Below the pieces are notes generated by a model. It did no database searches and was not told where the DNA came from. It saw only the letters and a list, made by a program, of their open reading frames with translations. Below are positions 4,800 through 62,059 of a DNA stretch of 64,000 bases, in pieces (the stretch's first letter is position 1; each line of letters begins with the position of its first letter). The stretch is from assembly GCA_038380435.1 (NCBI GenBank), contig JAWZYU010000025.1, positions 47,128,691 to 47,192,690 of the forward strand, written 5' to 3'. Source of the stretch: Ryuthela nishihirai (taxonomy: Eukaryota; Arthropoda; Arachnida; Araneae; Heptathelidae). Made by a program: the position numbers and the translations under genes.

Positions 4800-5220
4800 C
4801 AGTCGCTCAAAAAAGTATCCGAACACTATGATTGATTGCAAAATTAAGAAAAAATATCTGGCATTGATTTTTTTAGACATTAGTGATCTGGCAACCTTCG
4901 TGTCACGTGATTACAGAATTCAGGAAAAATATCTGGAGCGTGTAGAGCAACTGTACACGCTCCAGTTACCGTTCACAGCAAACTGGAGCGTGTGCAGTTA
5001 CTGCACACGCTCCAGTTTGCTGTGAACGGTAACTGCACACGCTCAATATTTCCGTGAGTGAGCCCACACGATCTAGTATCAAAATAATATGACCACCTAC
5101 AGTCGCTCAAAAAAGTATCCGAACACTATGGTTGATTGCAAAATTCAGAAAAAATATCTGGTATTGATTTTTTTAGAAATTAGTGATCTGGCAACCTTCG
5201 TGTCACGTGACACGAAGATT
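4800..5220. mobile_element. MITE-P copy A (long form, right end truncated)
   Basis: Starts CAGTCGCTCAAAAAAGTATC after TA (4798-4799). It holds the inner module with inverted GAGCGTGTGCAG/CTGCACACGCTC motifs and one satellite-like segment, then a second internal terminus at 5099 (TACAGTCGCTC). It breaks off just past the palindrome centre TGTCACGTGACA at about 5210. Confidence 0.88.
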
Positions 5221-5424
5221 GTCTCTATTTCCTTATAAACGTTAATACAAACAAATAATTTCTGTAAAGAGTCACTCTTTAAACAAATACGAGTCTACCC
5301 AAGCAGACTTTTGAGCTTTGTAGTAAGCTAGCAGAGCAGCTAAATTTAAAATGCTTGAATGCCCGGGGCTTTGCTAATCTCCCAATTACAAAAAGAGGAA
5401 ATTTGCGCGTACCTGCAGCATTAG

Positions 5425-10172: not shown

Positions 10173-10203
10173 CACTCAAAGTATAGCGATACATGCAAGC
10201 TAA

Positions 10204-12388: not shown

Positions 12389-12602
12389 CAGTCGCTCAAA
12401 AAAGTAGCTGAACACTATGGTTGATTACAGAATTCAGAAAAAATATCTGGCATTGATTTTTTTAGAAATTAGTCATCTGGCATCCTTCGTGTCACGTGAC
12501 ACGAAGGTTGCCAGATGACTAATATCTAAAAAAATCAATGCCAGATATTTTTTCTGAATTTTACAATCAACCATAGTGTTCGGATACTTTTTTGAGCGAC
12601 TG
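12389..12602. mobile_element. MITE-P copy B (short palindromic form)
   Basis: A 214-bp near-perfect palindrome with no spacer: the arms meet at TTCGTGTCACGTGACACGAA (centre at about 12496-12497). The right end is GAGCGACTG then TA; the left flanking TA has mutated. Mismatches are confined to about 12408 and a few arm positions. Confidence 0.93.
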
Positions 12603-17768: not shown

Positions 17769-19372
17769 CACTGAAGTGCCATTGAATTAGGGATATGAGA
17801 CGTTATCCAAATTCAGTACCGTAAGTTCCGCATTTGCGCGCATGCGTGGCTGAAACTCTGGTCATATATAGCTGTCAGCTTTGGTTTCCCCAAGCATTCG
17901 TCGTGAGAAGCGTAATGAGAAAGGCACGGGATTTAGATGCATTTGACAGAGGGCAGATCGTAGGTGCCCGACGGATAGGACACTCGATCTTCGAATTTGT
18001 CAACGAACTTGGATTTTCTCGTAAAACAGTTTCAAGAGTGTTCCGGAAATATGAAAATTCCCGCAAAAAATCAAGCACCCGGACAAACTGCAAAGGATAG
18101 CCAGCCTTGAATGATCGTGGGCTTCGCCGTCTGACCCTCATCGTACGGAATGATAGGGGCCAGACATTATCTGAAATCACCTCTCATCTGAACATGGGTT
18201 CCAGCCGGAAAGTCAGTACATGGGCTGTGCAATGCTCACTTCATCATCTCAGCTTCGGGAACCGCCGACCTACGAGAATCCCACTTCGTATGGCATGATA
18301 CCGGGCTCAACGCCTAGTCTGGGCTAAAGAACACCGAAACTAGACCATCGAAAATTGGCAACGGATAGCCTGGAGTGATGAATCCCGATTTAAACTTCAT
18401 AACGCCGATGGGAGACTGAGAGTATGGCGCCAACTCCATGAAGCAATGGATCCTGCATGTCAAGTCGGAACAGTAAAAGTTGGTGGTGACTCAGTGATGG
18501 TCTGGGGTGTCTTCAGTTTGGCTCTGTGGGACCTTTGGTACAGTCGCTCAAAAAAATATCCGAACACTACGGTTGATTACAGCATTCAGAAAAAATATCT
18601 GGCATTGATTTTTTTTAGAAATTAGTGATCTGGCAACCTTCGTGTCACGTGACACGAAGGTTGCCAGATGAGTAATGGCCGTAGTGTTCGGATACTTTTT
18701 TGAGCGACTGTAGGTGGTCATATTATTTTGATACTACATCGTGTGGGCTCACTCACGGAAATATTGAGCGTGTGCAGTTGCTGTACACGCTCCAGATATT
18801 TTTCCTGAATTCTGTAATCACGTGACACGAAGGTTGCCAGATCACTAATTTCTAAAAAAAAATTCGTTGCCAGATATTTTTTCTGAATTCTGTAATCAAC
18901 CGTAGTGTCCGGATATTTTTTTGAGCGACTGTACATGTACCGACGACTCTCAGTGCATCCCGGTGTGTAGAACTCATGGATGATCATTTACACCCATTAC
19001 GGCCATCATGCATCCCAATGGAGATGGTGTCTACCAACATGACAACCGTTCATCTCACAAGTCCAGGTTGGCTACTGCATGGTTGCAGGAGCGTTCTGCT
19101 TGACTTTGAAATAATGAATTGGCTACCTAGAAGCCCAGATTAAAATCCCATCGAAATCCTTTGGGAGATTGTTGAGCAGAGTGTTCGTGCCTGTGTCCCA
19201 TCAGCGACGACCTTGAGAGAATTGTGGACAGCTCTGGAGGATGCATGAGTCGCCATATCTGTGGAACATTTGCGCAAGCTTGTGGAGTCCTTGCCTCGTC
19301 ATGTGGAGGCCGTTATCAGGGAGGTCCAACACGTTACTAGGTTGATATCCCTAATTCAGTGGCCCTTCAGTG
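17769..19372 (+). pseudogene. Tc1-like transposon with both TIRs, split by MITE-P copy C
   Basis: Ends CACTGAAGTGCCATTGAATT (left) and its inverted counterpart at 19341-19372, each flanked by TA (17767-17768, 19373-19374). The transposase starts at about 17915 (MRKARDLDAFDRGQIVGARR, HTH) and stops at 18098. The middle (about 18105-18535) keeps WQRIAWSDESRF with the first catalytic Asp, then VWR..HE..DP and VGGDSVMVWGVF. After the MITE, YQHDN (second Asp) and SPD-NPIEILWEI (catalytic Glu) follow. About 1.2 kb without the insert, the usual Tc1 size. Several stops; inactive. Confidence 0.92.
18541..18931. mobile_element. MITE-P copy C, inserted in the Tc1-like element
   Basis: Flanked by TA at 18539-18540 and 18932-18933. 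Composed of a complete short palindrome (18541-18710), then TAGGTGGTCATATTATTTTG and an inner module with GAGCGTGTGCAG, then a second outer arm. It interrupts the transposase between its first and second catalytic Asp. Confidence 0.92.
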
Positions 19373-20840: not shown

Positions 20841-21002
20841 GAAGCCAACTCAGACCATGAAACCGATATTACCGATCTACACGGTGCACGTGAGATCCAT
20901 TGCCCCCGCTGCTTTCGTCATTAGTGTGTGCCCGTCTGCATGCGCTGCAAAAGAAACTCGATTCATCGGACAGTCAATTATTTTTTTCTATCTCCCATGG
21001 TA

Positions 21003-21703
21003 CAGTACTGTGCGAATTAGTTGGGACAGCGAAGCCTGGAGAACCACTTCGATCCGGCCACATCCAGCAATCCCCCAAATACCCACCCAAGGTCATGTTT
21101 TGGGGATGTTTCACAGCTTCCGGGCCACAGACGCTTCACCCCATTGAAGGAATGATGGACAGCAAAAAGTACATAGGCGTTCTGGAGGCGAAAATGGTCC
21201 CAACACTGCAGAAGCTGTTTCCTAACGGCGATGGGGTATTTCAACAGGATCTGGCTCCATGCCACAATTCTAAGCTTGCTAAGAGCTTCTTTACCCAGCA
21301 ACATTTGAAGGTATTGGAGTGGCCAGGAAATTCACCCGATCTAAACCCCATTGAAAATTTGTGGGCCATTATCAAAGCGCGCATATAAGATGGATTGCAC
21401 GACGAAACCACTAGATTCCACTAAGATATAGATTGCACGACGAAACCACTGGATTCCACTAAGATGGATTGCACGACGAAAACCAAAATGATAGAAAGTG
21501 TCATGAAAGTGTGGTACCACGACCCTGAAGTGAAGGAGATGTGTGGAAAGCTAGTGGCATCAATGGTTGAGAGGGTGGAAGAAGTAATTAAAGTTAAGGG
21601 GGGATCACATTCACTATTAACTACATTATTAAACAAATAAATATTTTAGTTGTGTATTTGTTACTACATTTTCCTATTGTCCCAACTAATTTGCACAGTA
21701 CTG
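21003..21703 (+). pseudogene. Internally deleted Tc1-like transposon with intact TIRs
   Basis: TIRs CAGTACTGTGCGAATTAGTT (left) and AACTAATTTGCACAGTACTG (right), flanked by TA (21001-21002, 21704-21705). Only the C-terminal half of the transposase remains, starting next to the left TIR: KVMFWGCFTASGP, NGDGVFQQDLAPCHNS (second catalytic Asp), EWPGNSPDLNPIENLW (Glu). There are 34 residues between them, the DD34E spacing of Tc1. A stop at 21386 is followed by a small repeat (21387-21485). The C-terminus (MIESVMKVWYHD onward) continues to 21637. The N-terminal HTH and first Asp are deleted, so it could only move in trans. Confidence 0.9.
21387..21485 (+). repeat. Short tandem triplication inside the Tc1-like relic
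   Basis: ATTGCACGACGAAACCACT / GGATTCCACTAAGAT repeats about 2.5 times, disrupting the transposase frame. Confidence 0.85.
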
Positions 21704-22904: not shown

Positions 22905-23560
22905 CTCGTTCTGACCTTGGGACAGGGCAGAAAGGGGTCATCGATGGGTTTGGAAAGGCAGCCTTCCTTTGGATGAGGGATTAAACCACGTTTCATGTGT
23001 AGGAGAGTTGGGTTGGGTTGTTTTACCTCTGAGCGGCACTTTTTTGCACACCATGGGCTAAATGGCCAGGCCACAAGGACCCCGAAGCCTCAGAGAAGGT
23101 TGGGGGAGGAGACCCACTGGAACAGCTGTTTGGAGACAGATGGTAGCCTCCCGTCAAGGCCATCCAGCGTGTTCTTTAACGTGCACAGGGTATGGCTCTC
23201 CCGCACACGGGGCCACGGCTTAACGTCCCATCCGACGGACGGCGGCCTTTCCAAGCCCATCGGTGTCCCCTACTGACCGTGGGCAGGGCGGAGAATTTTG
23301 CGGAGATAAATCTCAACGCTGACCCAGCTGGGACTCGAACCTGGGAACTACAGATTGCGAGCCTGGCGCGCTACCGACTGAGCCACCCCAGCCCCTGTGT
23401 AGGAGAGGTATATCATCGGTGCGTTAAAGATCAGGCTAGCTGTTGTGCTAAGAGTTTGCCAATAATATCTTTTCTCTACCTAGCTCAAAACACTTGGGGA
23501 TTATTGTGAGTTTTTCATTTATAGCCTCTCTTTAGTGCAAAACAACCCAAAATATTTTAT
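22905..23560 (+). mobile_element. Old SINE-A relic split by a younger SINE-A
   Basis: The left half (GACAGGGCAG, CATCGATGGGTTTGGAAAGG, GGATGAGGGATTAAACCACG) reaches 23007. The right half resumes at 23408 (GCGTTAAAGATCAGGCTAGC) and ends near 23540 with CTTTAGTGCAAAACAACCC. The insert at 23008-23395 is in the opposite orientation. Confidence 0.75.
23008..23395 (-). mobile_element. SINE-A copy, full length, nested in an older SINE-A
   Basis: 12-bp TSD TGTGTAGGAGAG at 22996-23007 and 23396-23407, lying inside the older copy's body. Confidence 0.95.
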
Positions 23561-24734: not shown

Positions 24735-25340
24735 GGGATGTCTGATTGCCACTTTTCGTTTTGTCGAGTGCTTCGCTACAGAGAACTGGATTCGAGCCAT
24801 GGACAAGGCACGTGTTTTATTTCCTTACGGGTGACCTGCTGCTGAGATTTCGCTATCCACACATACATATCTCTTTCATGAGTAGGGACGGGGGTGCTCA
24901 GTCGGTAGCGCGCCAGCCTCGTAATCTGTAGTTCCCAGGTTCGAGTCCCAGCTGGGTCAGCGTTGAGATTTATCTCCGCAAAAATTCCCCGCCCTGCCCA
25001 CGGTCAGTAGGGGACACCGATGGGCTTGGAAAGGCCGCCGTCCGTCGGATGGGACGTTAAGCCGTGGCCCCGTGTGCGGGAGAGCCATACCCTGTGCACG
25101 TTAAAGAACACGCTGGATGGCCTTGACGGGGGGGCTACCATCTGTCTCCCAACAGTTGTTCCGGTGGGTCCCCTCCCCCAACCTTCTCTGAGCCTTCGGG
25201 GTCCATGTGACCTGGCCATTTAGCCCATAGTGTGCAAAAAAGTACCGCTCAGAGGTAAAACAACCCAACCTTTCATGAGTATGGATTTGAAAGACTCCTC
25301 TTAGCCCCTGTGGAAGCTTGAGGAATAATTAAAATTTTAT
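24735..25340 (+). mobile_element. Diverged SINE-B split by SINE-A
   Basis: The left part keeps the SINE-B B-box/body (GATTCGAGCCATGGACAAGG, GCTGCTGAGATTTCGC). The right part (25282-25340) keeps the GACTCCTCTTAGCCCCTGTGG and GCTTGAGG end. Confidence 0.65.
24885..25269 (+). mobile_element. SINE-A copy nested in SINE-B
   Basis: 12-bp TSD CTTTCATGAGTA at 24873-24884 and 25270-25281. One base lost in the head (GGGGGTGCTCAG). Confidence 0.95.
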
Positions 25341-25411
25341 TGGAGTGGAAACGAAATTGAGAAATATTTGCTTCTACTGGAATGTCTTGCCTTTGACAGA
25401 CATTTTTTCAT

Positions 25412-28400
25412 ATTACTGTTGGAATAGAAATAAAGCGAAAGGATTTCTTCTAATTGGGATATTTTGCCTTGAGATCCCCTTTTCATCTTACTGTTGGAAT
25501 AGAAATAAAGCGGAAGGATTTCTTCTAATTGGGATATTTTGCCTTGATATCCCCTTTTCATCTTACTGTTGGAATAGAAATAAAGCGGAAGGAATTCTTC
25601 TAATTGGGATATTTTGCCTTGAGATCCACTTTTCAACTTACTGTTGGAATAGAAATAAAGCGGAAGGAGTTCTTCTAATTGGGATATTTCGCCTTGAGAT
25701 CCCCTTTTCATCTTACTGTTGGAATAGAAATAAAGCGGAAGGATTTCTTCTAATTGGGATATTTTGCCTTGAGATCCACTTTTCATCTTACTGTTGGAAT
25801 AGAAATAAAGCGGAAGGAATTCTTCTAATTGGGATATTTTGCCTTGAGATCCACTTTTCAACTTACTGTTGGAATAGAAATAAAGCGGAAGGAGTTCTTC
25901 AAATTGGGATATTTTGCCTTGAGATCCCCTTTTCATCTTACTGTTGGAATAGAAATAAAGCGGAAGGATTTCTTCTAATTGGGATATTTTGCCTTGAGAT
26001 CCACTTTTCATCTTACTGTTGGAATAGAAAAAAAGCGGAAGGAGTTCTTCTAATTGGGATATTTTGCCTTGAGATCCACTTTTCATCTTACTGTTGGAAT
26101 AGAAATAAAGCGGAAGGAGTTCTTCTAATTGGGATATTTTGCCTTGAGATCCCCTTTTCATCTTACTGTTGGAATAGAAATAAAGCGGAAGGATTTCTTC
26201 TAAATGGGATATTTTGCCTTGAGATCCCCTTTTCATCTTACTGTTGGAATAGAAATAAAGGGAAGGATTTCTTCTAATTGGGATATTTTGCCTTGAGATC
26301 CACTTTTCATCTTACTGTTGGAATAGAAATAAAGCGGAAGGAGTTCTTCTAATTGGGATATTTTGCCTTGAGATCCACTTTTCATCTTACTGTTGGAATA
26401 GAAATAAAGCGGAAGGATTTCTTCTAAATGGGATATTTTGCCTTGAGATCCCCTTTTCATCTTACTGTTGGAATAGAAATAAAGCGGAAGGATTTCTTCT
26501 ATTTGGGATATTTTGCCTTGAGATCCACTTTTCATCTTACTGTTGGAATAGAAATAAAGCGCAAGGATTTCTTCTAATTGGGATATTTTGCCTTGAGATC
26601 CACTTTTCATCTTACTGTTGGAATAGAAATAAAGCGGAAGGATTTCTTCTAATTGGGATATTTTGCCTTGAGATCCCCTTTTCATCTTACTGTTGGAATA
26701 GAAATAAAGCGGAAGGATTTCTTCTAATTTTGATATTTTGCCTTGAGATCCACTTTTCATCTTACTGTTGGAATAGAAATAAAGCGGAAGGAATTCTTCT
26801 AATTGGGATATTTTGCCTTGAGATCCACTTTTCAACTTACTGTTGGAATAGAAATAAAGCGGAAGGATTTCTTCTAATTGGGATATTTTGCCTTGAGATC
26901 CCCTTTTCATCTTACTGTTGGAATAGAAATAAAGCGGAAGGAGTTCTTCAAATTGGGATATTTTGCCTTGAGATCCCCTTTTCATCTTATTGTTGGAATA
27001 GAAATAAAGCGGAAGGATTTCTTCTAATTGGGATATTTTGCCTTGAGATCCCCTTTTCAACTTACTGTTGGAATAGAAATAAAGCGGAAGGAGTTCTTCT
27101 AATTGGGATATTTTGCCTTGAGATCCCCTTTTCATCTTACTGTTGGAATAGAAATAAAGCGGAAGGATTTCTTCTAATTGGGATATTTTGCCTTGAGATC
27201 CACTTTTCATCTTACTGTTGGAATAGAAATAAAGCGGAAGGAGTTCTTCAAATTGGGATATTTTGCCTTGAGATCCCCTTTTCATCTTACTGTTGGAATA
27301 GAAATAAAGTGGAAGGATTTCTTCTAATTGGGATATTTTGCCTTGAGATCCACTTTTCATCTTACTGTTGGAATAGAAATAAAGTGGAAGGATTTCTTCT
27401 AATTGGGATATTTTGCCTTGAGATCCCCTTTTCATCTTACTGTTGGAATAGAAATAAAGCGGAAGGAGTTCTTCAAATTGGGATATTTTGCCTTGAGATC
27501 CACTTTTCATCTTACTGTTGGAATAGAAATAAAGCGGAAGGAATTCTTCTAATTGGGATATTTTGCCTTGAGATCCACTTTTCAACTTACTGTTGGAATA
27601 GAAATAAAGCGGAAGGAGTTCTTCTAATTGGGATATTTTGCCTTGAGATCCACTTTTCAACTTACTGTTGGAATAGAAATAAAGTGGAAGGAGTTCTTCT
27701 AATTGGGATATTTTGCCTTGAGATCCCCTTTTCATCTTACTGTTGGAATAGAAATAAAGCGGAAGGATTTCTTCTAATTGGGATATTTTGCCTTGAGATC
27801 CACTTTTCAACTTACTGTTGGAATAGAAATAAAGCGGAAGGAGTTCTTCTAATTGGGATATTTTGCCTTGAGATCCACTTTTCAACTTACTGTTGGAATA
27901 GAAATAAAGCGGAAGGAGTTCTTCAAATTGGGATATTTTGCCTTGAGATCCCCTTTTCCTCTTACTGTTGGAATAGAAATAAAGCGGAAGGAATTCTTCT
28001 AATTGGGATGTTTTGCCTTGAGATCCACTTTTCATCTTACTGTTGGAATAGAAATAAAGCGGAAGGAGTTCTTCTAATTGGGATATTTTGCCTTGAGATC
28101 CACTTTTCATCTTACTGTTGGGATAGAAATAAAGCGGAAGGAGTTCTTCTAATTTTGATATTTTGCCTTGAGATCCACTTTTCATCTTACTGTTGGAATA
28201 GAAATAAAGCGGAAGGATTTCTTCTAATTGGGATATTTTGCCTTGAGATCCACTTTTCATCTTACTGTTGGAATAGAAATAAAGTGGAAGGATTTCTTCT
28301 AATTGGGATATTTTGCCTTGAGATCCCCTTTTCATCTTACTGTTGGAATAGAAATAAAGCGGAAGGAGTTCTTCAAATTGGGATATTTTGCCTTGAGATC

Positions 28401-29394
28401 CACTTTTCATCTTACTGTTGGAATAGAAATAAAGCGGAAGGAATTCTTCTAATTGGGATATTTTGCCTTGAGATCCACTTTTCAACTTACTGTTGGAATA
28501 GAAATAAAGCGGAAGGAGTTCTTCTAATTGGGATATTTTGCCTTGAGATCCACTTTTCAACTTACTGTTGGAATAGAAATAAAGCGGAAGGAGTTCTTCT
28601 AATTGGGATATTTTGCCTTGAGATCCCCTTTTCATCTTACTGTTGGAATAGAAATAAAGCGGAAGGATTTCTTCTAATTGGGATATTTTGCCTTGAGATC
28701 CACTTTTCAACTTACTGTTGGAATAGAAATAAAGCGGAAGGAGTTCTTCTAATTGGGATATTTTGCCTTGAGATCCACTTTTCAACTTACTGTTGGAATA
28801 GAAATAAAGCGGAAGGAGTTCTTCAAATTGGGATATTTTGCCTTGAGATCCCCTTTTCCTCTTACTGTTGGAATAGAAATAAAGCGGAAGGAATTCTTCT
28901 AATTGGGATGTTTTGCCTTGAGATCCACTTTTCATCTTACTGTTGGAATAGAAATAAAGCGGAAGGAGTTCTTCTAATTGGGATATTTTGCCTTGAGATC
29001 CACTTTTCATCTTACTGTTGGGATAGAAATAAAGCGGAAGGAGTTCTTCTAATTTTGATATTTTGCCTTGAGATCCACTTTTCATCTTACTGTTGGAATA
29101 GAAATAAAGCAGAAGGATTTCTTCTAATTGGGATATTTTGCCTTGAGATCCAGTTTTCATCTTACTGTTGGAATAGAAATAAAGCGGAAGGAGTTCTTCT
29201 AATTGGGATATTTTGCCTTGAGATCCCCTTTTGATCTTACTGTTGGAATAGAAATAAAGCGGAAGGAGTTCTTCCAATTGGGATATTTTGCCTTGAGATC
29301 CACTTTTCATCTTACTGTTGGAATAGAAATAAAGCGGAAGGAATTCTTCTAATTGGGATATTTTGCCTTGAGATCCACTTTTCAACTTACTGTT
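25412..29394. repeat. 75-bp satellite array, about 53 units
   Basis: The unit contains CTTACTGTTGGAATAGAAAT, AAAGCGGAAGGATTTCTTCT and AATTGGGATATTTTGCCTTG, then AGATCCCCTTTTCAT. Units differ at a few recurrent positions (GATTTC/GAGTTC/GAATTC; CCCC/CCAC; TCAT/TCAA). A 900-bp (12-unit) block at about 27301-28200 is repeated almost perfectly at 28201-29100. As 75 is a multiple of 3 and the unit has no stop in one frame of each strand, frames of up to 1050 codons (minus) and 834 codons (plus) exist. A 1-bp deletion at about 26261 breaks both. I regard them as by-products. Confidence 0.97.
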
Positions 29395-29950
29395 AGAGTA
29401 GAAACAGAACTGGGGATGAATAATTGGAATTGCGATGTTTTATTAACATTAATATTCATTCTTTAGCTTGTTGTTGGAGTGAAAAAGAAATTATTTTATT
29501 TGAATGTTTTAACCCTGTTGTTTAACAAAGTGGATACCACTGATATTTATATCGTTGGAGTAGAAAGAAAACTGCAGATTATTTGTTTGGATTGGTGTGA
29601 TTTATTGTTCGTTATTTTTGCATTGATTTAGCTCTTGATTTTTAGCTTACTATTTTATTATTGAACTATTAGATTTGAATGAAAATGAGAATTGATTTTT
29701 GAATTCGCATGTTTTGGCTTTGACAGAGCTCTTTCCATCAAACTTTTGCCGAGTGGCCATTAATAATTGTCCATTAAAGTTGAAACCAAATTAGGAATAA
29801 ATTATTTTGGATTCGGAAATTTTACTCCTGATGTTCGCTAATTGGAAATTAGACTTGTATTGGGATGTTTAATTCCTAATTACCTCTCTTAAGCTTACTT
29901 TAGCAATTGAATATATTTGTGCCGAGTGGGAAGTTTTATAGATAGATTCA
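29395..29950. repeat. Decayed right flank of the 75-bp satellite
   Basis: Degenerate units with TTGGAGT-AGAAA-AAACTG and TTTTAACCCT/TTTATTC spacing continue about seven times; a related left-flank unit lies at 25337-25411 and an isolated one at 31403-31460. The array edge has drifted. Confidence 0.6.
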
Positions 29951-31616: not shown

Positions 31617-32590
31617 TGGTTTGTCTCACCTTTTTTCGCACAATGGGCTAAATGGACAGGTCACAAGAAATTTAAGGATCAGAGAACATTAGAGGAGCTG
31701 CTGATAGAGATAGAAGTCTCCCTTCAAAGCCAAAGCCATCCAGCGAGTACATATACGTGCACAGAATATGGTTCTCCTGCGCACAGGCTCTTAGGATTTG
31801 AGACTTTAAGTCCCATCCGACGGACGGCAGCCTTTCTGAGCCCGTCGGTGTACAGTCGCTCAAAAAAGTATCCGAACACTATGGTTGATTGCAAAATTCA
31901 GAAAAGATATCTGGAATTGATTTTTCTAGAAATTAGTGATCTGGCAACCTTCGTGTCACGTGATTACAGAATTCAGGAAAAATATCTGGAGCTGTGTACA
32001 GCAACTGTACACGCTCCAGTTACCGTTCACAGCAAACTGGAGCGTGTGCAGTTATTGCACACGCTCCAGTTTGCTGTGGACGGTAACTGCACACGCTCAA
32101 TATTTCCGTGAGTAAGCCCACACGATCTAGGTCTTTGTGAGCTCACACAATCCAATGTGCTGTGAACATTAACCGCAACCGCTCCAGTTTGCTGTGAACG
32201 GTAACTGCACACGCTCCATATTCATTGCATTATATATTCATACGCATTATATATATATATTAAAAAATATTCAAACACTATGGTTGATTGCAAAATTCAG
32301 AAAAAATATCTGGCATTGATTTTTTTAGAAATTAGTGATCTGGCAACCTTCGTGTCACGTGACACGAAGGTTGCCAGATGACTAATTTCTAAAAAACAAT
32401 GCCTGATATTTTTTCTAAATTTTGCAATCAACTATAGTGTTCGGATACTTTTTTGAGCGATTGTACCCTTTCTGAACCGAGAGCAAATAGAGAGTTTATC
32501 AGAGAGAAATTTCAGTGCTGGCCCAGCTGGGACTTGGGAACTGCAGATAACGAGTCTGACGCGCTACCCACCGGGCAACCCCGCCCTCCC
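31617..32590 (-). mobile_element. Old SINE-A copy split by MITE-P copy D
   Basis: The left part (31625-31850) has CAATGGGCTAAATGGACAGG and CCCATCCGACGGACGGCAGC. The right part (32466-32588) has GGCCCAGCTGGGACTTGGGA and the head complement AACGAGTCTGACGCGCTACC. Together they form one diverged minus-strand SINE-A. Confidence 0.85.
31853..32463. mobile_element. MITE-P copy D (long form)
   Basis: Flanked by TA at 31851-31852 and 32464-32465. A left arm, an inner module with about 1.5 satellite units (31995-32220, including CACACGATCTAGGTCTTTGTG), a TATATAT stretch, then a complete short palindrome as right end. Confidence 0.92.
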
Positions 32591-38142: not shown

Positions 38143-38412
38143 GTTAATTCTCATTCCCAACGAATATCGCCTGAAAAATAATATAAATAGAGATTGAATT
38201 AATATAAAACCGTCGAATTTTAATAAATTAAATTTAATTAAAACATGTATAACTATCATTTTTTTCTGCTTTTTTTATCGATGCATTTTAGCACCAGAAT
38301 TTCTAATTTCTATCATAAATATATCGTTAGCAATATTACTTCAATATTACTCCCTAAAGAGGTGCATGTGGCAAACAATGTTATAATTAGTGTCACTCTG
38401 AAACAGATGTCC

Positions 38413-38858
38413 TTCCATGAGCGTAGGGAAGTGATCAGAAGTGATCAGCAGACATAGACTTCCATGAGCGTAGGGAAGTGATCAGAAGTGATCAGCAGAC
38501 ACAGACTTCCATGAGCGTAGGGAAGTGATCAGAAGTGATCAGCAGCACAGGCTTCCATGAGCGTAGGGAAGTGATCAGAAGTGATCAGCAGACACAGACT
38601 TCCATGAGTGTAGGGAAGTGATCAGAAGTGATCAGCAGACACAGACTTCCATGAGCGTAGGGAAGTGATCAGAAGTGATCAGCAGACACAGACTTCCATG
38701 AGTGTAGGGAAGTGATCAGCAGACACAGACTTCCATGAGTGTAGGGAAGTGATCAGAAGTGATCAGCAGACACAGACTTCCATGAGTGTAGGGAAGTGAT
38801 CAGAAGTGATCAGCAGACACAGACTTCCATGAGTGTAGGGAAGTGAGTGTAGGGATTT
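38413..38858. repeat. 47-bp minisatellite, about 10 units
   Basis: Unit TTCCATGAGCGTAGGGAAGT, then GATCAGAAGTGATCAGCAGA and CACAGAC. One unit lacks an internal AGAAGTGATCAG. The sub-repeat AGTGATCAG occurs twice per unit. It abuts a Tc1-like relic. Confidence 0.95.
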
Positions 38859-38859
38859 T

Positions 38860-39121
38860 GCATGGCCGGCGAAATCGCCCGACCTCAATCCCATAGAGCA
38901 CTTGTGGGACCATTTCGATCGACAGGTTCGGCGTACAAACCCACAACACGTCATTTCCGTAACCTTTGTTCTCTGCTGAAGTCCGAATAGGCACGTGTGC
39001 CTCTGGCAAACTTCCAGTGCCTCATTGCGTCCATGCCACACCGTCTCGCCGCTGACATCCGGGCCAAGGGTGGTTATTCCCATTATTAGGTAGGTGGTCA
39101 TATCATTCTGATACGACTGTG
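38860..39121 (+). pseudogene. Tc1-like transposase C-terminus with right TIR
   Basis: Reads FAWPAKSPDLNPIEHLWDHF (catalytic Glu region), then VRRTNPQH. After a frameshift it reads VPLANFQCLIASMPHRLAAD and IRAKGGYSHY, with its stop at 39087-39089, the usual C-terminus for this family. The TIR follows at once: on the minus strand CAGTCGTATCAGAATGATAT, then GACCACCTACC. MITE-P copy E starts 4 bp beyond. Confidence 0.88.
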
Positions 39122-39123: not shown

Positions 39124-39339
39124 CGGTCGTTCAAAAAAGTATCCGAACACTATGGTTGATCACAGAATTCAGAAAAAAATATCTGGCAACAATTTTTTTA
39201 GAAATTAGTGATCTGGCAACTTCGTGTCACGTGACACGAAATTGCCAGATCACTAATTTCTAAAAAAAAATTGTTGCCAGATATTTTTTTCTGAATTCTG
39301 TGATCAACCATAGTGTTCGGATACTTTTTTGAACGACTG
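39124..39339. mobile_element. MITE-P copy E (short palindromic form)
   Basis: A 216-bp palindrome flanked by TA (39122-39123, 39340-39341), centre TGTCACGTGACA. Confidence 0.93.
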
Positions 39340-43677: not shown

Positions 43678-44059
43678 TTGGGTTGTTTTACCTCTGAGCG
43701 GCACTTTTTTGCACACCATGGGCTAAATGGCCAGGTCATATGGACCCCGAAGGCTCAGGGAAGGTTGGGGGAGGGGACCCACTGGAACAGCTGTTGGGAG
43801 ACAGATGGTAGCCTCTCGTCAAGGCCATCCAGCGTGTTCTTTAACGTGCACAGGGTATGGCTCTCCCACACACGGGGCCACGGCTTAACGCCCCATCCGA
43901 CGGACGGCGGCCTTTCCAAGCCCATAGGTGTCCCTTACTGACCGTGGGCAGGGCGGTGAATTTTGCTGAGATAAATCTTAACGCTGACCTAGCTGGGACT
44001 CGAACCTGGGAACTACAGATTACGAGCCTGGCGCGCTACCGACTGAGCCACCCCGCCCC
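43678..44059 (-). mobile_element. SINE-A copy, full length
   Basis: 13-bp TSD AAATTTTGAAGAG at 43665-43677 and 44060-44072. Confidence 0.95.
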
Positions 44060-44608: not shown

Positions 44609-45605
44609 CAGTCGCCCAAAAAAGTATCCGAACACTATGGTTGATTACAGAATTCAGAAAAAATATCTGGCAAAGATTTTTTTAGAAAATAGTGATCTGG
44701 CAACCTTCGTGTCACGTGATTACAGAATTCAGGAAAAATATCTGGAGTGTGTACAGCAATTGCACACGCTCAATATTTCCGTGAGTGAGCCCACACGATC
44801 TAGGTCTTTGTGAGCTCACACGATCCAATGTGCTGTGAACATTAACCGCAACCGCTCCAGTTTGCTGTGAACGGTAACTGCACACGCTCAATATTTCCGT
44901 GAGTGAGCCCACGCGATGTAGGTCTTTGTGAGCTCACGCGATCCAATGTGCTGTGAACATTAACCGCAACCGCTCCAGTTTGCTGTGAACGGTAACTGCA
45001 CACGCTCAATATTTCCGTGAGTGAGCCCACACGATCTAGGTCTTTGTGAGCTCACACGATCCAATGTGCTGTGAACATTAACCGCAACCGCTCCAGTTTG
45101 CTGTGAACGGTAACTGCACACGCTCAATATTTCCGTGAGTGAGCCCACGCGATGTAGGTCTTTGTGAGCTCACGCGATCCAATGTGCTGTGAACATTAAC
45201 CGCAACCGCTCCAGTTTGCTGTGAACGGTAACTGCACACGCTCAATATTTCCGTGAGTGAGCCCACACGATCTAAGTCTTTGTGAGCTCACACGATCCAA
45301 TGTGCTGTGAACATTAACCGCAACCGCTCCAGTTTGCTGTGAACGGTAACTGCACACGCTCAATATTCACTGCATTATATATGCATCGCATTATATATAT
45401 TAAAAAATATCCGAACACTATGGTTGATTACAGAATTCAGAAAAAATATCTGGCATGGATTTTTTTAGACATTAGTCATCTGGCAACCTTCGTGTCACGT
45501 GACACGAAGGTTGCCAGATGACTGATTTCTAAAAATATCAATGCCAGATATTTTTTCTGAATTTTGCAATCAACCATAATGTTCGGATACTTTTTTGAAC
45601 GACTG
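44609..45605. mobile_element. MITE-P copy F carrying about five 118-bp satellite units
   Basis: TA at 44607-44608 and 45606-45607. Left arm, inner stem, tandem units at 44765-45365, TATATAT spacer, then a complete short palindrome (45408-45605). Alternate units carry CACACGATCTAGG and CACGCGATGTAGG, so the array is a dimer-of-118 (236-bp) higher-order repeat. Confidence 0.92.
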
Positions 45606-45607
45606 TA

Positions 45608-45926
45608 TCATCTTGTTAGCAACAATTTCAAAGCAAATTTTATGGGATTTTTTTTTCAATAACCGACAGATAATAAGTTCCATACTTTGTTATCGGTGAT
45701 TGAAGTTCAAATTTTGGACCAATCTATAAAATTCATAAATATGTTTCCTCAGTTTAACAAGATACGCTCCTCCGACAGTTATCATTAAGGAACTAAAAAT
45801 AAATTTACGAAAACCAAAGTTACGGAAGAAATCAAGAAATCCACATTATATACCAAAAATAAAAAAGAAAAATAATAAGAGTCACAATAAATTACGAAAA
45901 GATTCACTGGTAGCTGAACCCTGGTG
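45608..45926. other. Spacer between the two satellite-bearing MITEs
   Basis: Non-repetitive AT-rich sequence. Shows that copies F and G are separate insertions rather than one element. Confidence 0.6.
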
Positions 45927-45928
45927 TA

Positions 45929-48900
45929 TAGTCGCTGAAAAAAGTATCCGAACACTATGGTTGATTGCAAAATTCAGAAAAAATATTTGGCAACGATTTT
46001 TTTTAGAAATCAGTGATCTGGCAACCTTTGTGTCACGTGATTACAGAATTCAGGAAAAATATCTGGAGTGTGTACAGTGAATTGCACACGCTCAATATTT
46101 CCGTGAGTGAGCCCACACGATCTAGGTCTTTGTGAGCTCACACGATCCAATGTGCTGTGAACATTAACCGCAACCGCTCCAGTTTGCTGTGAACGGTAAC
46201 TGCACACGCTCAATATTTCCGTGAGTGAGCCCACACGATCTAGGTCTTTGTGAGCTCACACGATCCAATGTGCTGTGAACATTAACCGCAACCACTCCAG
46301 TTTGCTGTGAACGATAACTGCACACGCTCAATATTTCCGTGAGTGAGCCCACACGATCTAGGTCTTTGTGAGCTCACACGATCCAATGTGCTGTGAACAT
46401 TAACCGCAACCGCTCCAGTTTGCTGTGAACGGTAACTGCACACGCTCAATATTTCCGTGAGTGAGCCCATACGATCTAGGTTTTTGTGAGCTCACACGAT
46501 CCAATGTGCTGTGAACATTAACCGCAACCGCTCCAGTTTGCTGTGAACGATAACTGCACACGCTCAATATTTCCGTGAGTGAGCCCACACGATCTAGGTC
46601 TTTGTGAGCTCACACGATCCAATGTGCTGTGAACATTAACCGCAACCGCTCCAGTTTGCTGTGAACGGTAACTGCACACGCTCAATATTTCCGTGAGTGA
46701 GCCCACACGATCTAGGTTTTTGTGAGCTCACACGATCCAATGTGCTGTGAACATTAACCGCAACCGCTCCAGTTTGCTGTGAACGGTAACTGCACACGCT
46801 CAATATTTCCTTGAGTGAGCCCACACGATCTAGGTCTTTGTGAGCTCACACGATCCAATGTACTGTGAACATTAACCGCAACCACTCCAGTTTGCTGTGA
46901 ACGGTAACTGCACACGCTCAATATTTCCGTGAGTGAGCCCACACGATCTAGGTCTTTGTGAGCTCACACGATCCAATGTGCTGTGAACATTAACCGCAAC
47001 CGCTCCAGTTTGCTGTGAACGGTAACTGCACACGCTCAATATTTCCGTGAGTGAGCCCATACGATCTAGGTTTTTGTGAGCTCACACGATCCAATGTGCT
47101 GTGAACATTAACCGCAACCGCTCCAGTTTGCTGTGAACGATAACTGCACACGCTCAATATTTCCGTGAGTGAGCCCACACGATCTAGGTCTTTGTGAGCT
47201 CACACGATCCAATGTGCTGTGAACATTAACCGCAACCGCTCCAGTTTGCTGTGAACGGTAACTGCACACGCTCAATATTTCCGTGAGTGAGCCCACACGA
47301 TCTAGGTCTTTGTGAGCTCACACGATCCAATGTGCTGTGAACATTAACCGCAACCGCTCCAGTTTGCTGTGAACGGTAACTGCACACGCTCAATATTTCC
47401 TTGAGTGAGCCCACACGATCTAGGTCTTTGTGAGCTCACACGATCCAATGTACTGTGAACATTAACCGCAACCACTCCAGTTTGCTGTGAACGGTAACTG
47501 CACACGCTCAATATTTCCGTGAGTGAGCCCACACGATCCAATGTGCTGTGAACATTAACCGCAACCGCTCCAGTTTGCTGTTAACGGTAACTGCACACGC
47601 TCAATATTTCCTTGAGTGAGCCCACACGATCTAGGTCTTTGTGAGCTCACACGATCCAATGTGCTGTGAACATTAACCGCAACCACTCCAGTTTGCTGTG
47701 AACGGTAACTGCACACGCTCAATATTTCCGTGAGTGAGCCCACACGATCTAGGTCTTTGTGAGCTCACACGATCCAATGTGCTGTGAACATTAACCGCAA
47801 CCGCTCCAGTTTGCTGTGAACGGTAACTGCACACGCTCAATATTTCCTTGAGTGAACCCACACGATCAAGGTCTTTGTGAGCTCACACGATCCAATGTGC
47901 TGTGAACATTAACCGCAACCGCTCCAGTTTGCTGTGAACGGTAACTGCACACGCTCAATATTTCCTGGAGTGAGCCCACACGATCAAGGTCTTTGTGAGC
48001 TCACACGATCCAATGTGCTGTGAACATTAACCGCAACCACTCCAGTTTGCTGTGAACGGTAACTGCACACGCTAAATATTTCCGTGAGTGAGCCCACACG
48101 ATCTAGGTCTTTGTGAGCTCACACGATCCAATGTACTGTGAACATTAACCGCAACCACTCCAGTTTGCTGTGAACGGTAACTGCACACGCTCAATATTTC
48201 CGTGAGTGAGCCCACACGATCTAGGTCTTTGTGAGCTCACACGATCCAATGTGCTGTGAACATTAACCGCAACCGCTCCAGTTTGCTGTGAACGGTAACT
48301 GCACACGCTCAATATTTCCGTGAGTGAGCCCATACGATCTAGGTTTTTGTGAGCTCACACGATCCAATGTGCTGTGAACATTAACCGCAACCGCTCCAGT
48401 TTGCTGTGAACGATAACTGCACACGCTCAATATTTCCGTGAGTGAGCCCACACGATCTAGGTCTTTGTGAGCTCACACGATCCAATGTGCTGTGAACATT
48501 AACCGCAACCGCTCCAGTTTGCTGTGAACGGTAACTGCACACGCTCAATATTTCCGTGAGTGAGCCCACACGATCTAGGTCTTTGTGAGCTCACACGATC
48601 CAATGTGCTGTGAACATTAACCGCAACCGCTCCAGTTTGCTGTGAACGGTAACTGCACACGCTCAATATTTCCTTGAGTGAGCCCACACGATCTAGGTCT
48701 TTGTGAGCTCACACGATCCAATGTACTGTGAACATTAACCGCAACCACTCCAGTTTGCTGTGAACGGTAACTGCACACGCTCAATATTTCCGTGAGTGAG
48801 CCCACACGATCCAATGTGCTGTGAACATTAACCGCAACCGCTCCAGTTTGCTGTGAACGGTAACTGCACACGCTCAATATTTCCTTGAGTGAGCTCACAC

Positions 48901-49088
48901 GATCCAATGTGCTGTGAACATTAACCGCAACCGCTCTAGTTTGCTCTGAACGGTAACTGGAGCGTGTACACTGTACACGCTCCAGAGATTTTTCCTGAAT
49001 TCTGTAATCACGTGACACGAAGGTTGCCAGATAGTTTTCCTCAATTCTGTAATCAACCATAGTGTTCGGATACTTTTTTGAGCGACTG
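45929..49088. mobile_element. MITE-P copy G, 3.16 kb, expanded by a satellite
   Basis: TA at 45927-45928 and 49089-49090. Left arm TAGTCGCTGAAAAAAGTATC (first base mutated); right arm ends GAGCGACTG. The arms and inner stem are as in the other long copies, but almost all of the length is the 118-bp array at about 46085-48950. Confidence 0.92.
46085..48950. repeat. 118-bp satellite array, about 24 units
   Basis: The unit contains GCACACGCTCAATATTTCCG, GAGTGAGCCCACACGATCTA, GTCTTTGTGAGCTCACACGA, TCCAATGTGCTGTGAACATT and AACCGCAACCGCTCCAGTTT. Variant units (CATACGATCTAGGTTTTTG; TTCCTTGAG; a short unit lacking about 25 bp) recur at fixed offsets of 590 bp and 1273 bp. The roughly 62-codon frames per unit are not genes. 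Confidence 0.97.
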
Positions 49089-54886: not shown

Positions 54887-55369
54887 CAGTCCCTGAAAAA
54901 AGTATCCGAACACTATGGTTGATTACAGAATTCAGAAAAAATATCTGGCAACGATTTTTTTTTTTGAAATTAGTGAAATTAGTAATAATTTTTTGAAATT
55001 AGTTTGGCAACCTTCGTGTCACGTGACACGAAGGTTGCCAAACTAATTTCTAAACTAATTACTAATTTCTAAAAAAATCGTCGCCAGATTTTTTTTCTGA
55101 ATTCTGTAATCGACTATAGTGTTCGGATACTATTTTGAGCGACTGTAGGTGGTCATATTATTTTGATACTAGATGTGTGGGCTCACTCACGGAAATATTG
55201 AGCGTGTGCAGTTACCGTTCACAGCAAACTGGAGCGTGTGCAGTAACTGCACAGGCTCCAGTTTGCTGTAAACGGTAACTGGAGCGTGTACAGTTGGTGT
55301 ACACGCTCCATATATTTTTTCTGAATTTTGCAATCAACCATAGTGTTCGGATACTCTTTTGAGCGACTG
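54887..55369. mobile_element. MITE-P copy H (long form)
   Basis: TA at 54885-54886 and 55370-55371. A complete palindrome (54887-55145) with a local duplication of TTTGAAATTAGT, then TAGGTGGTCATATTATTTTG, the inner module with one GAGCGTGTGCAG stem pair, then the outer arm. Confidence 0.92.
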
Positions 55370-56034: not shown

Positions 56035-57190
56035 ATGTTTCTGTCTTCATAAAACCATTGTAGACCGAAAACTTTTCGAAGATTGTCGTGCCCCGCAAGC
56101 GAGGAGATAGATAAGAAATGTAAAACTCTTTTGACACGCTTCGTAGGGGACGATTAATTTGCCCCCTTAATTAATATTCACCATTATCGAAGGTGAAACC
56201 ACAGGCTTCTGGGTTTTCACCCCCGATTGTGCCTCAGACGTGCTGTGCTAAGCGTCGTGTAGGAGGATGAAACAAACTAATGCACAAGAGTAATGGATAG
56301 ACGACACGTTTATTTACATTCACAATATGTACAGTCGCTCAAAAAAGTATACGAACGCTATGGTTAATTGTAGAATTGAGAAAAAATATCTGGCAACGAT
56401 TTTTTTTTTAGAAATTAGTGATCTGGCAACCTTCGTGTCACGTGATTACAGAATTCAGGAAAAATATCTGGAGCGTGTACAGCAACTGTACACGCTCCAG
56501 TTACTGTTCACAGCAAACTGGAGCGTGTGCAGTTACTGCACACGCTCCAGTTTGCTGTGAACGGCAACTGCACACGCTCAATATTTCCGTGATTGAGCCC
56601 ACACGATCTAGTATCAAAATAATATGACCACCTACAGTCGTTCAAAAAAGTATCCGAACACTATGGTTGATTGCAAAATTCAGAAAAAATATCTGGCAAT
56701 GATTTTTTTTAGAAATTAGTGATCTGCCAACCTTCTTGTCACGTGACACGAAGGTTGCGAGATCACTAATTTCTAAAAATATCAATGCCAGATATTTTTT
56801 CTGAATTCTGTAATCAACCATGGTGTTCGGATAGTTTTTTGGGGCGACTGTACATATGGTAATGTCTCTGATTCCGTGGGCTTTAGCTGCGCTCAGAGCG
56901 TGAATGAAATGAATTTTCAGATGTTTTGGTAGACTTCCTCCAATTAGCTTAATTTAACCTCAATGGTGCTTCGCTACTGCAAGTATTCGGATGATAAGGG
57001 GAAATCTGTACTTTACAGAAATCTCTTTGCCGACCTCAAAACCGGGAGAGACGATATTTAATCCTTCCCTAAACCACCTAGTTCACATGGCACCGAATCC
57101 TGGTCCTTTAGGGTCTCTCTTGAGAAAGAGCTATCTCCTTTTTGGACGCGTTTCACAAACGCCTTTCCTGTTTGCCAGCAACGCTCAGTG
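56035..57190. repeat. Unclassified dispersed family U1, copy 1 (split by MITE-P copy I)
   Basis: Shares in order with 63010-63628: TTGTCGTG, AATTxGxCCCTTxATT, CGTTTATTTACATT vs GGTTTATTCACATT, GATTCCGTGGGCTTTAGCTG vs GATTCCGTAGGCCTTTGCTG, and GACGCGTTTCACAAACG vs GACGCGTGTTCAAACG. No coding domain; could be LTR-derived. Confidence 0.55.
56332..56850. mobile_element. MITE-P copy I (long form), inserted in family U1
   Basis: TA at 56330-56331 and 56851-56852. Outer arm, inner module with one unit of stem repeats (56475-56600), CTAGTATCAAAATAATATGA, then a complete short palindrome from 56635. Confidence 0.92.
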
Positions 57191-57564: not shown

Positions 57565-58540
57565 TTGACGTTCCTGATATTAAAGACAATATATTCCTGA
57601 TATTAATGACAAAGACTGTCTTCATGAAACCATGATAAAACCATTTCTGTCTTCATAAAACCAATCAATGTTGTTTTTCGGCTGGAACGGCGTTCCGGTA
57701 CATTCTTTTAAATATTTTTTTATAAGAAAGAAACATTGTTATTATAGAAAATATGTTTAAAACATATCAGTCTAACACTTATTTATAAATTAAAGAAAAT
57801 ATTTAATTTGAATGAAAGACAGACACTCAGAAAATTTTGCGAATATCGCAAGAAAAAGACATTTTTTTTTTAATTAATGAAGGAAAAGCATTCCTTTCAC
57901 CAGCGATATTGGGAGCCATTCCGTGACTTTTGGAACGGAATTTTTTAGCAAACAGTAATCAACAAAGCATGTGCTCTCACATGTGATGCCACCTCCGGAT
58001 TTGGTTATGGTTTTGTATTTAGACGCCAGAAGGCGTGTTAATATTCATAACGCTGAAACTACTTTCAGTGTGGTTTCAGCGTTTTGCTTCGCAGAAAAAT
58101 TTTTAGAATCGTAGAAAAAATTTAGAAGCTTGGCTTCGTCAACGCTTCGCAGAAAAACAATATATCAACTATGAATGATAACCAATGAAAGAATCAACTG
58201 TGATTGACGATGCAAAATAAATTGATCTAGTACCCATAGTGCACTGGGTGTCATAGAGATTATTCTTATTGCACTCTTTCCATTTTTTTTTTGGTTTCTC
58301 CAGGGCTTACCCAGTTTATCTTTCAATAAGTCATTCTATCCTAGTGGTTTAGTTGTTTAGGAGAGTTTTATCGTGTTTGACCCTCTGAGTTTAGACAAAG
58401 ACACCCTGATATTTAACGTCACGACAGTGATTTCAGTGACGTCACGAATCGCCCATCCACCCCACTGGAAATTTTTCGGTACACCGCTGCACTTAGAAGT
58501 CTTTTGTTCATCTTCTGGAAGAACATTCACAGCAGAACAG
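57565..58540. other. Unannotated stretch with small hairpins
   Basis: An 11-bp stem AACGCTGAAAC at 58049-58059 pairs with 58073-58083. TGACGTCA at 58437-58444. No gene recognised. Confidence 0.4.
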
Positions 58541-58544
58541 CAAG

Positions 58545-60055
58545 GTAGACGAATTAGAAGAAACCGACATGGGCCGCTTGCAAGGTAGAAGAATTAGAAG
58601 AAGCAGACATGGGTCGCTTGCAAGGTGGAAGAATTAGAAGAAGCAGACATGGGTCGCTTGCAAGGTAGAAGAATTAGAAGAAGCAGACATGGGTCGCTTG
58701 CAAGGTAGAAGAATTAGAAGCAGACATGGGTCGCTTGCAAGGTAGAAGAATTAGAAGAAGCAGACATGGGTCGCTTGCAAGGTAGAAGAATTAGAAGAAG
58801 TCGACATGGGTCGCTTGCAAGGTAGAAGAATTAGAAGAAGTCGACATGGGTCGCTTGCAAGGTAGAAGAATTAGAAGAAACAGACATGGGTCGCTTGCAA
58901 GGTAGAAGAATTAGAAGAAGCCGACATAGGTCGCTTGCAAGGTAGAAGAAACAGAAGAAGCAGACATAAGCCGCTTGCAAGGTAGAAGAATTAGAAGAAG
59001 CAGACATGGGTCGCTTGCAAGGTAGAAGAATTAGAAGAAACAGACATGGGTCGCTTGCAAGGTAGAAGAAACAGAAGAAGCAGACATAAGCCGCTTGCAA
59101 GGTAGAAGAATTAGAAGAAGCCGACATAGGTCGCTTGCAAGGTAGAAGAAACAGAAGAAGCAGACATAAGCCGCTTGCAAGGTAGAAGAATTAGAAGAAG
59201 CAGACATGGGTCGCTTGCAAGGTAGAAGAATTAGAAGAAACAGACATGGGTCGCTTGCAAGGTAGAAGAAACAGAAGAAGCAGACATAAGCCGCTTGCAA
59301 GGTAGAAGAATTAGAAGAAGCAGACATGGGTCGCTTGCAAGGTAGAAGAAATAGAGTTGGGTTGGGTTGTTTTACCTCTGAGCGGCACTTTTTTGCACAC
59401 CATGGGCTAAATGGCCAGGTCACATGGACCCCGAAGGCTCAGAGAAGGTTGGGGGAGGGGACCCACTGGAACAGCTGTTGGGAGACAGATGGTAGCCTCC
59501 CGTCAAGGCCATCCAGCGTGTTCTTTAACGTGCACAGGGTATGGCTCTCCCGCACACGGGGCCACGGCTTAACGTCCCATCCGACGGACGGCGGCCTTTC
59601 CAAGCCCATCGGTGTCCCCTACTGACCGTGGGCAGGGCGGGGAATTTTGCGGAGATAAATCTCAACGCTGACCCAGCTGGGACTCGAACCTGGGAACTAC
59701 AGATTACGAGCCTGGCGCGCTACCGACTGAGCCACCCCCGCCCCAGAAGAAATAGAAGAAGCAGACATAAGTCGCTTGCAAGATAGAAGAATTAGAAGAA
59801 GCAGATATGGGTCGCTTGCAAGGTAGAAGAATTAGAAGAAGCCGACATGGGTCGCTTGCAAGGTAGAAGAATTAGAAGAAGCAGACATGGGTCGCTTGCA
59901 AGGTAGAAGAAATAGAAGAAGCAGACATAAGTCGCTTGCAAGATAGAAGAATTAGAAGAAGCAGACATGGGTCGCTTGCAAGGTAGAAGAATTAGAAGAA
60001 GCAGACATGGGTCGCTTGCAAGGTAGAAGAATTAGAAGAAACAGACATGGGCCGC
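58545..60055. repeat. 40-bp minisatellite, about 28 units, interrupted by SINE-A
   Basis: Unit GACATGGGTCGCTTGCAAGG plus TAGAAGAATTAGAAGAAGCA, with variants CATAAGCCGC and AACAGAAG recurring as pairs (multi-unit duplication). Units continue on both sides of the SINE at 59356-59744. Confidence 0.96.
59356..59744 (-). mobile_element. SINE-A copy inside the minisatellite
   Basis: 12-bp TSD AGAAGAAATAGA at 59344-59355 and 59745-59756, made of array sequence. Essentially consensus, so probably recent. Confidence 0.96.
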
Positions 60056-60425
60056 TTGGTTAAATTTTCCCTTTCCACTAAAACTGACCGTTATAGTTCT
60101 AGTTCTTCCTTTTCTATCTTCTTCGCCACCTTTTTAAACTGAACTTGTTGACTGAATGATTAGAAACTGTCAGACCAACCCGAAGTTTGATTTACAGAAA
60201 GGAAACATTTTGCGCTTCTTAAAATTGGATTTTCTTTATTCAATTCCATTTGATTTTCCATTTATCATTACTCAAAACACTCAAAATGTAATTAACGCCA
60301 AGTTCCCTGCTACGTAACTTCACTTTTCACCTTGTAACCCTCCCCTCCATAGCACCCTTCCTTCGGCTATATACTGATGTATATATCTGTAATAATAATA
60401 ATAATAAAAAATAAAAAAAATAAAA
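60056..60425. other. Unannotated spacer
   Basis: AATAAT microsatellite-like run at about 60388-60425. Nothing else recognised. Confidence 0.4.
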
Positions 60426-60522: not shown

Positions 60523-60526
60523 GGAA

Positions 60527-60692
60527 CGTGTACAGCAACTGTACACGCTCCAGTTACCGTTCACACTGGAGCGTGTGCAGTAACTGCACACGCTCCAGTT
60601 TGCTGTGAACGGTAACTGCACACGCTCAATATTTCTGTGAGTGGGCCCACACGATCCAGGTTTTTGTGAGCTCACACGATCCAATGTAAATA
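60527..60692. repeat. Stray MITE-P inner module / one 118-bp satellite unit
   Basis: GTGTACAGCAACTGTACACG, then CAGTTTGCTGTGAACGGTAA, CTCAATATTTCTGTGAGTGG and GAGCTCACACGATCCAATGT. No outer MITE-P arms. Confidence 0.88.
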
Positions 60693-61618: not shown

Positions 61619-62059
61619 CAGTCGCTCAAAAAAGTATCCGAACGCTATGGTTGGTTACAGAATTCAGAAAAAATATCTGGCAACGATTTTTTTTAGAAAT
61701 TAGTGATCTGGCAACCTTCGTGTCACGTGACACGAAAGCTGCCAGATCACTAATTTGTAAAAAAATCGTTGAAAGATATTTTTCCTGAATTCTGTAATCA
61801 ACTATAGTGTTCCGATACTTTTTTTAAGCGACTGTAGGTGGTCATATTATTTTGATACTAGATCGTGTGGGCTCACTCACGGAAATATTGAGCGTGTGCA
61901 GTTACCGTTCACAGCAAACTGGAGCGTGTGCAGTAACTGCACACGCTCCAGTTTGCTGTGAACGGTAACTGGAGCGTGTACAGTTGCTGTACACGCTCCA
62001 GATATTTTTTCTGAATTCTGTAATCAACCATAGCGTTCGGATACTTTTTTGAACGACTG
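61619..62059. mobile_element. MITE-P copy J (long form)
   Basis: TA at 61617-61618 and 62060-62061. Complete palindrome (61619-61834), TAGGTGGTCATATTATTTTG, inner module with paired GAGCGTGTGCAG/GAGCGTGTACAG stems, then the outer arm. Confidence 0.93.

What the first reader, a model, noticed from the sequence alone, without database searches (positions are those of the whole stretch)
44609..49088. A palindromic Tc1-type MITE in the act of becoming a satellite
MITE-P exists here in graded forms: short palindromes of about 215 bp (copies B, E); long forms with an inner stem module of about 0.3-1.5 units (A, C, D, H, I, J); copy F with about 5 tandem units; and copy G with about 24. All the bounded copies end in the same TIR and all but B have TA on both sides, so the array grew inside a mobile element. 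The order short, module, array within one window is a natural series for satellite birth. The palindromic stems of the module may promote slippage or break-induced expansion.
Basis: partly seen in the sequence, partly recalled or inferred. Interest (0 to 1): 0.75.

Follow-up and report, generated by a model that had tools for sequence, protein, structure and literature searches.

The report
Tandem array inside Tc1-like MITE
Two neighbouring copies of a small DNA transposon carry a 118-base unit repeated 5 and 25 times, and the repeats appear to have multiplied in place inside the transposon, a route to satellite DNA already described in frogs and flies.

Summary
The window has ten copies (A-J) of a TA-flanked, palindromic Tc1-like MITE. 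F (44609-45605) holds 5 complete 118-bp units and G (45929-49088) holds 25 (22 x 118 bp, 3 x 93 bp). D holds one; the other seven hold none or 43 bp.

That the array grew inside the mobile element is supported locally. One-unit D and five-unit F share the array's right-end junction. F and G share no changed unit type. G contains exact 770-bp and 403-bp duplicated blocks although its arms carry private mutations.

The series "short, module, array" is not supported. A, C, H, I and J are composites: left arm, 43 bp of the unit, a 23-bp Tc1-like 3'-end fragment, then a short palindrome. G has two inverted left-type arms. F and G lack most of the strong module hairpins and the unit hardly folds better than shuffles, so stem-driven slippage is unsupported. 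Unequal exchange seeded by a ~43-bp direct repeat (present in D) fits better.

Seven other good arrays lie outside this MITE, so array growth is common here. The genome-wide test could not be run: the genome search did not complete. miDNA4 (Tc1/mariner MITE, Xenopus) and Tetris (Drosophila) are the same kind of case.

The parts
44609..45605 (+). copy F of the MITE: left arm, 5 complete 118-bp units, AT-rich junction, short palindrome that has lost its inner TIR
44761..45367 (+). array in F; unit types in the order 0-1-0-1-2; units 2 and 4 share three changes, one of which (C40G) is also in copy C
45929..49088 (+). copy G of the MITE: left arm, 25-unit array, inverted left-type arm
46083..48957 (+). 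array in G, 25 units (22 x 118 bp, 3 x 93 bp); exact 770-bp block repeated at lag 1273 and exact 403-bp block at lags 590 and 1863
45929..46082 (+). left arm of G (TIR, half palindrome, inner direct repeat, shortened module stem)
48958..49088 (-). right arm of G, an inverted left-type arm with an internal deletion, keeping the outer module hairpin
31853..32463 (+). copy D: one complete unit (32088-32205) with two copies of a ~43-bp direct repeat (2 mismatches) 118 bp apart; same kind of right junction as F
4800..5221 (+). copy A: composite long form, right palindrome cut just past its centre
12389..12602 (+). copy B: short palindrome (one flank AA instead of TA)
18541..18931 (-). copy C: composite long form with shortened module and a deletion in its palindrome
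39124..39339 (+). copy E: short palindrome, beside the end of a Tc1-type transposase fragment
54887..55369 (-). copy H: composite long form; left arm shortened between direct repeats
56332..56850 (+). copy I: composite long form
61619..62059 (-). copy J: composite long form; same left-arm shortening as H
38851..39113 (+). 3' end of a broken Tc1-type transposase gene and the sequence after its stop; the latter matches the tail in composites A, C, H, I, J at 21 of 23 bases
60523..60688 (+). module fragment (hairpins plus about 0.6 unit) without TIRs, inside another dispersed repeat

Best explanation
F and G are non-autonomous Tc1-like elements whose internal 118-bp sequence, itself made of degenerate 25-32-bp subrepeats, was amplified into tandem arrays after the element had formed, mainly by unequal exchange or replication slippage between direct repeats. 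A one-unit element such as D already carries a ~43-bp direct repeat spaced 118 bp apart, which is enough to start the process; later exchanges duplicated blocks of several units in place. Shown: boundaries, unit counts, different unit variants in F and G, block duplications, 25-bp losses between direct repeats. Inferred: the exchange mechanism, the order of events, and that most of G's growth came after its insertion.
For: Both arrays start and stop inside TIR- and TA-bounded copies. D (1 unit) and F (5 units) share the same array edge: ATATTCA, C or T, TGCATTATATAT. The commonest unit is identical in F and G, and no changed unit type occurs in both (5 units of F and 24 of G compared). G's unit types recur in order (longest repeated block 5 units, permutation p 0.0069 over 24 units) and contain exact repeats of 770 bp and 403 bp, against 5 private changes in 247 arm bases of G (Fisher p 0.0008). 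The possible breakpoints of the 25-bp loss differ between the first two 93-bp units and the third, which suggests at least two losses. Circular self-match of the unit at offsets 25 and 32 is 52 of 118; 0 of 2000 simple shuffles reach this at any offset from 15 to 59.
Against: The 770-bp block is the best over all lags, so the Fisher value is optimistic. Private arm changes may predate the insertion. Exact blocks in an array may also come from assembly. D could be a collapsed array rather than a seed. The differing breakpoint could also be one loss followed by a base change. No genome-wide count was possible, so capture of an older satellite is not excluded; only this window was examined.
Confidence: 0.65

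Rival explanations
1. The MITE captured a stretch of a pre-existing satellite (as proposed for miDNA4 in Xenopus according to the review PMC12628747), and the arrays in F and G are imported.
For: The unit is itself built of degenerate subrepeats. A TIR-less module fragment exists at 60523-60688. One unit change is shared by F and C. Capture is what was proposed for the nearest published analogue.
Against: No array of the unit lies outside the MITE in this window. F and G share no changed unit type, and D and F share an array edge. The TIR-less fragment also carries the MITE's hairpins, so it looks like a piece of the element.
Confidence: 0.17
2. Stem-driven expansion: palindromic stems of the module stall replication and cause slippage or break-induced expansion.
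For: Module hairpins are very stable in the two copies folded, A and I (z -16.1 and -14.8), and the short palindrome B too (z -28.8).
Against: F and the left side of G lack the large hairpin, and C lacks it without having an array; G keeps the outer hairpin on its right side. The unit folds only slightly better than shuffles (z -1.48 and -1.91). Copies that keep both hairpins (A, D, H, I, J) have at most one complete unit. Other arrays in the window grew without this element, and the four of them whose units I folded (three as dimers) do not fold unusually.
Confidence: 0.08
3. The arrays, or G's length, are partly an assembly product of the 118-bp repeat.
For: Exact 770-bp internal duplication; other long arrays in the same window.
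Against: Unit variants differ between F and G and change along G; the array is closed by arms and TA on both sides.
Confidence: 0.08

Closest known systems
miDNA4, Tc1/mariner MITE of Xenopus tropicalis (Scalvenzi and Pollet; seen only as described in reviews PMC12628747 and PMC9659126)
   Same: Tc1/mariner-type MITE with an internal repeat present as a single monomer or as an array of variable number; direct-repeat-mediated change of copy number proposed
   Different: Sequences were not compared. Capture of a tandem repeat is proposed there. Here the ends are long palindromes, and some copies are composites with a Tc1-like end fragment.
Tetris / TIR-220 of Drosophila virilis (PMC4079207; abstract, section on characterization of Tetris and part 1 of the discussion read)
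   Same: Non-autonomous foldback-like element whose internal tandem repeats vary in number and gave rise to satellite-like arrays; unequal crossing-over proposed
   Different: Tetris has 8-10 bp target-site duplications (its authors suggest the Mutator superfamily) and repeats within its TIRs; here the target site is TA and the array is central
Xstir tandem repeats and their MITE in Xenopus (described in PMC12628747)
   Same: MITE, tandem array and composite MITE-array forms
   Different: Stem-loop excision between neighbouring elements is the mechanism proposed there; not indicated here

Membership tests
Tc1/mariner-type MITE | TA target-site duplication | tested here: met
   8 of 9 two-ended copies have TA on both sides; empty site for D only, at 65-82% identity
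Tc1/mariner-type MITE | terminal inverted repeats shared with an autonomous Tc1/mariner element | tested here: inconclusive
   A Tc1-type transposase fragment (DDE_3) beside E is followed by ...CGACTG, matching only the outermost CAGTCG; the next bases differ
Tc1/mariner-type MITE | short and non-coding | tested here: inconclusive
   The eight two-ended copies other than G are 214-997 bp; G is 3160 bp. Coding was judged only by eye from the list of frames of 130 residues or more; frames that overlap copies read as arm or array sequence and were not scanned for domains.
MITE-borne satellite precursor (miDNA4 kind) | variable number of tandem units within TIR-bounded copies | tested here: met
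   0, 0.36, 1, 5 and 25 units
MITE-borne satellite precursor (miDNA4 kind) | arrays of the same unit elsewhere, free of TIRs | not tested
   The genome search unanswered at all 21 attempts; within this window none
Foldback element (Tetris kind) | tandem repeats within both long TIRs | tested here: not met
   tandem units lie between the arms, not within both TIRs

The most novel reading that the evidence does not exclude
A palindromic Tc1-like MITE forms composite elements by using the outer ends of two neighbouring copies, picking up a Tc1 transposon end on the way, and in a related lineage a 118-bp internal unit is now seeding a new satellite across the genome.
Probability: 0.15. Interest if true: 0.5.

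Novelty: new member of a known kind. Interest (0 to 1): 0.32.

Why it matters
It is a readable local example of an internal unit present once, 5 times and 25 times within one defined transposon family, with a possible seed repeat, shared boundaries and block duplications all visible, so the exchange model can be tested copy by copy across the genome. The principle itself is published.

Tried and rejected
Rejected: the 75-bp array (25405-29404) as a second TIR-bounded array. Its flanking 240-bp inverted pair (95% identity) is two opposed copies of a SINE-like repeat that matches all over the window.

Rejected: the Tc1-type fragment at 20894-21388 (DDE_3) as the autonomous partner, since the nearest MITE TIRs are about 2 kb and 10 kb away and belong to copies C and D. 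A protein search gave 1772 hits of 1800 candidates (best 120 listed); the few named ones include fish, a spider and a leafhopper. This does not identify the organism.

Led nowhere: TIR and tail patterns in viral contigs (0 matches each; the tool says records of the window's own genome may be left out). TIR letters in papers gave one unrelated paper (listing only); tail letters gave none.

Weak: palindrome arms within a copy are slightly more alike than left and right arms of different copies (0.096 against 0.114, permutation p 0.014; 7 of 9 palindromes used, A and C dropped because cut or deleted). This may mean arm-to-arm conversion.

Weak: F and G are the closest of 45 pairs of copies (chance 1/45), noted after the fact. 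Local exchange between them would explain it, but they share no changed unit type.

Considered and dropped: dating by arm divergence against module divergence, because old subfamily differences confound it.

Full report
Observation. The 26-bp end of the element occurs 22 times in the window, with none in 100 shuffles. Comparison of arms, short palindrome and unit gives ten copies. Nine have both ends, and 8 of these 9 have TA on both sides (the I row is off by one base through my coordinate). Copy D interrupts an old SINE relative: 27 BLAST rows elsewhere in the window span the joined flanks, at about 65-82% identity; the other eight copies gave none. F has 5 complete 118-bp units and G has 25, of which three are 93 bp. 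D has one. A, C, H, I and J have 43 bp of the unit (42 in H), and B and E none.

Anatomy. Copies B and E are palindromes (B folds at -106 kcal/mol, z -28.8; E was not folded). The other copies carry a left arm: the same half palindrome followed by a direct repeat of its inner part; in H and J this arm is shortened. In A, D, H, I and J two module hairpins follow. The right ends are of three kinds. In A, C, H, I and J the unit is cut after 43 bp and joined to TATCAAAATAATATGACCACC, then TA and a short palindrome (cut past its centre in A, with a deletion in C). In D and F an AT-rich junction leads into a palindrome that has lost its inner TIR. In G the right end is an inverted left-type arm. The ten copies are therefore a set of rearrangements and not a ladder from short to long.

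The tail of the composites (23 bp with the TA) occurs exactly in five copies and, with 2 mismatches, once more beside copy E. There it begins one base after the stop codon of a broken Tc1-type transposase end. The 42-residue piece 38851-38976 matches DDE_3 (E 1.1e-6, 29.0 bits against a cut-off of 28.6); the last piece, 38991-39086, in another frame, matched no Pfam family, and I take it for the Tc1 C-terminus from recall of such proteins. The remnant seems to end in CGACTG, the outermost bases of the MITE's TIR. The simplest reading, which is inference, is that a short palindrome inserted at a TA near such a Tc1 end and that the composite was then mobilised by the outer ends of two elements.

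Array growth. The unit consists of degenerate subrepeats (self-match 52 of 118 at offsets 25 and 32; 0 of 2000 simple shuffles; period-32 rows). D's single unit comes with two copies of a direct repeat of about 43 bp (2 mismatches) spaced 118 bp, the geometry needed for misalignment (printed). D and F share the right edge of the array. F's units follow the order 0-1-0-1-2, a duplicated dimer. G's 24 anchored units show 11 types with the block 0-4-0-0-6 repeated (p 0.0069), and the longest exact repeats are 770 bp (lag 1273) and 403 bp (lags 590 and 1863). No changed unit type is shared between F and G (G's 25th unit was not in that comparison). Against a strict 'private variants' reading, one of the changes in F (C40G) also occurs in copy C's 43-bp module. 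The three 93-bp units suggest at least two deletions. G's arms carry 5 private changes in 247 bases, against none in the chosen 770-bp duplicate (p 0.0008, optimistic because the block was chosen as the longest). Together these favour amplification and turnover in place.

Stems. The module hairpins are real in the two copies folded, but F and the left side of G lack the large one, as does array-less C; G keeps the outer hairpin on its right. Copies with both hairpins have at most one complete unit. The unit folds little better than its shuffles (16 and 8 of 200). Stem-promoted expansion is thus not supported here, though the numbers are small.

Base rate. Seven other arrays with seven or more copies lie in the window outside the MITE (starts 3392, 8411, 9898, 25405, 38412, 58540, 59745); an eighth, at 1869, has 5.5 poor copies. 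Of 13 arrays checked for inverted repeats within 800 bp, only F and G gave element arms; the 25405 array gave a pair of opposed SINEs, and the 21386 array a 29-bp inverted match that I did not follow. Array growth is therefore not special to this element.

What could not be done. The decisive genome-wide scan did not complete (21 attempts). Whether the unit forms a genuine satellite elsewhere is open.

Comparison. Reviews (PMC12628747: passages and section 6 part 1; PMC9659126: passages) describe miDNA4, a Tc1/mariner MITE with an internal satellite motif as monomer or array, and Xstir. Tetris (PMC4079207: abstract, one results section, part 1 of the discussion) gives a foldback parallel. The first papers on miDNA4 and Xstir were not read. 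The case is a new member of that known kind. The organism was not identified; that it is an animal is inference from the Tc1 relatives.

Noticed in passing
38851-39113: Broken 3' end of a Tc1-type transposase gene directly beside copy E; the sequence after its stop recurs as the tail in five composite MITE copies.
   Followed up: yes
24951-25269 and many other places: A SINE-like family of about 320-356 bp with over 20 long copies in the window, most of them 92-98% like the query copy; a tRNA-Ala prediction at 23320-23393 and a tRNA match at 43985-44057 overlap its copies.
   Followed up: partly
3392-3915, 8411-9738, 9898-10180, 25405-29404, 38412-38846, 58540-59355, 59745-60058: Seven further tandem arrays with seven or more copies (periods 30-75 bp) outside the MITE; it looks like many for one window, but no comparison window was examined.
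   Followed up: partly
60523-60688: Module fragment without MITE ends, between two direct copies of another dispersed repeat also seen near 7394-7714.
   Followed up: partly
39124-39339 and 54887-55145: Matching changes on both arms of the palindromes E and H (H has related insertions on both arms), suggesting arm-to-arm conversion or re-copying of one arm.
   Followed up: partly
55306-55369 and 61996-62059: H and J share a left-arm shortening between direct repeats of the inner TIR part, so they may be one sublineage.
   Followed up: no
44879-44996, 45115-45232 and 18734-18776: The change C40G of F's second unit type is also in copy C's partial unit, hinting at a shared history of F and C; C also has the same shortened left junction as F.
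   Followed up: partly
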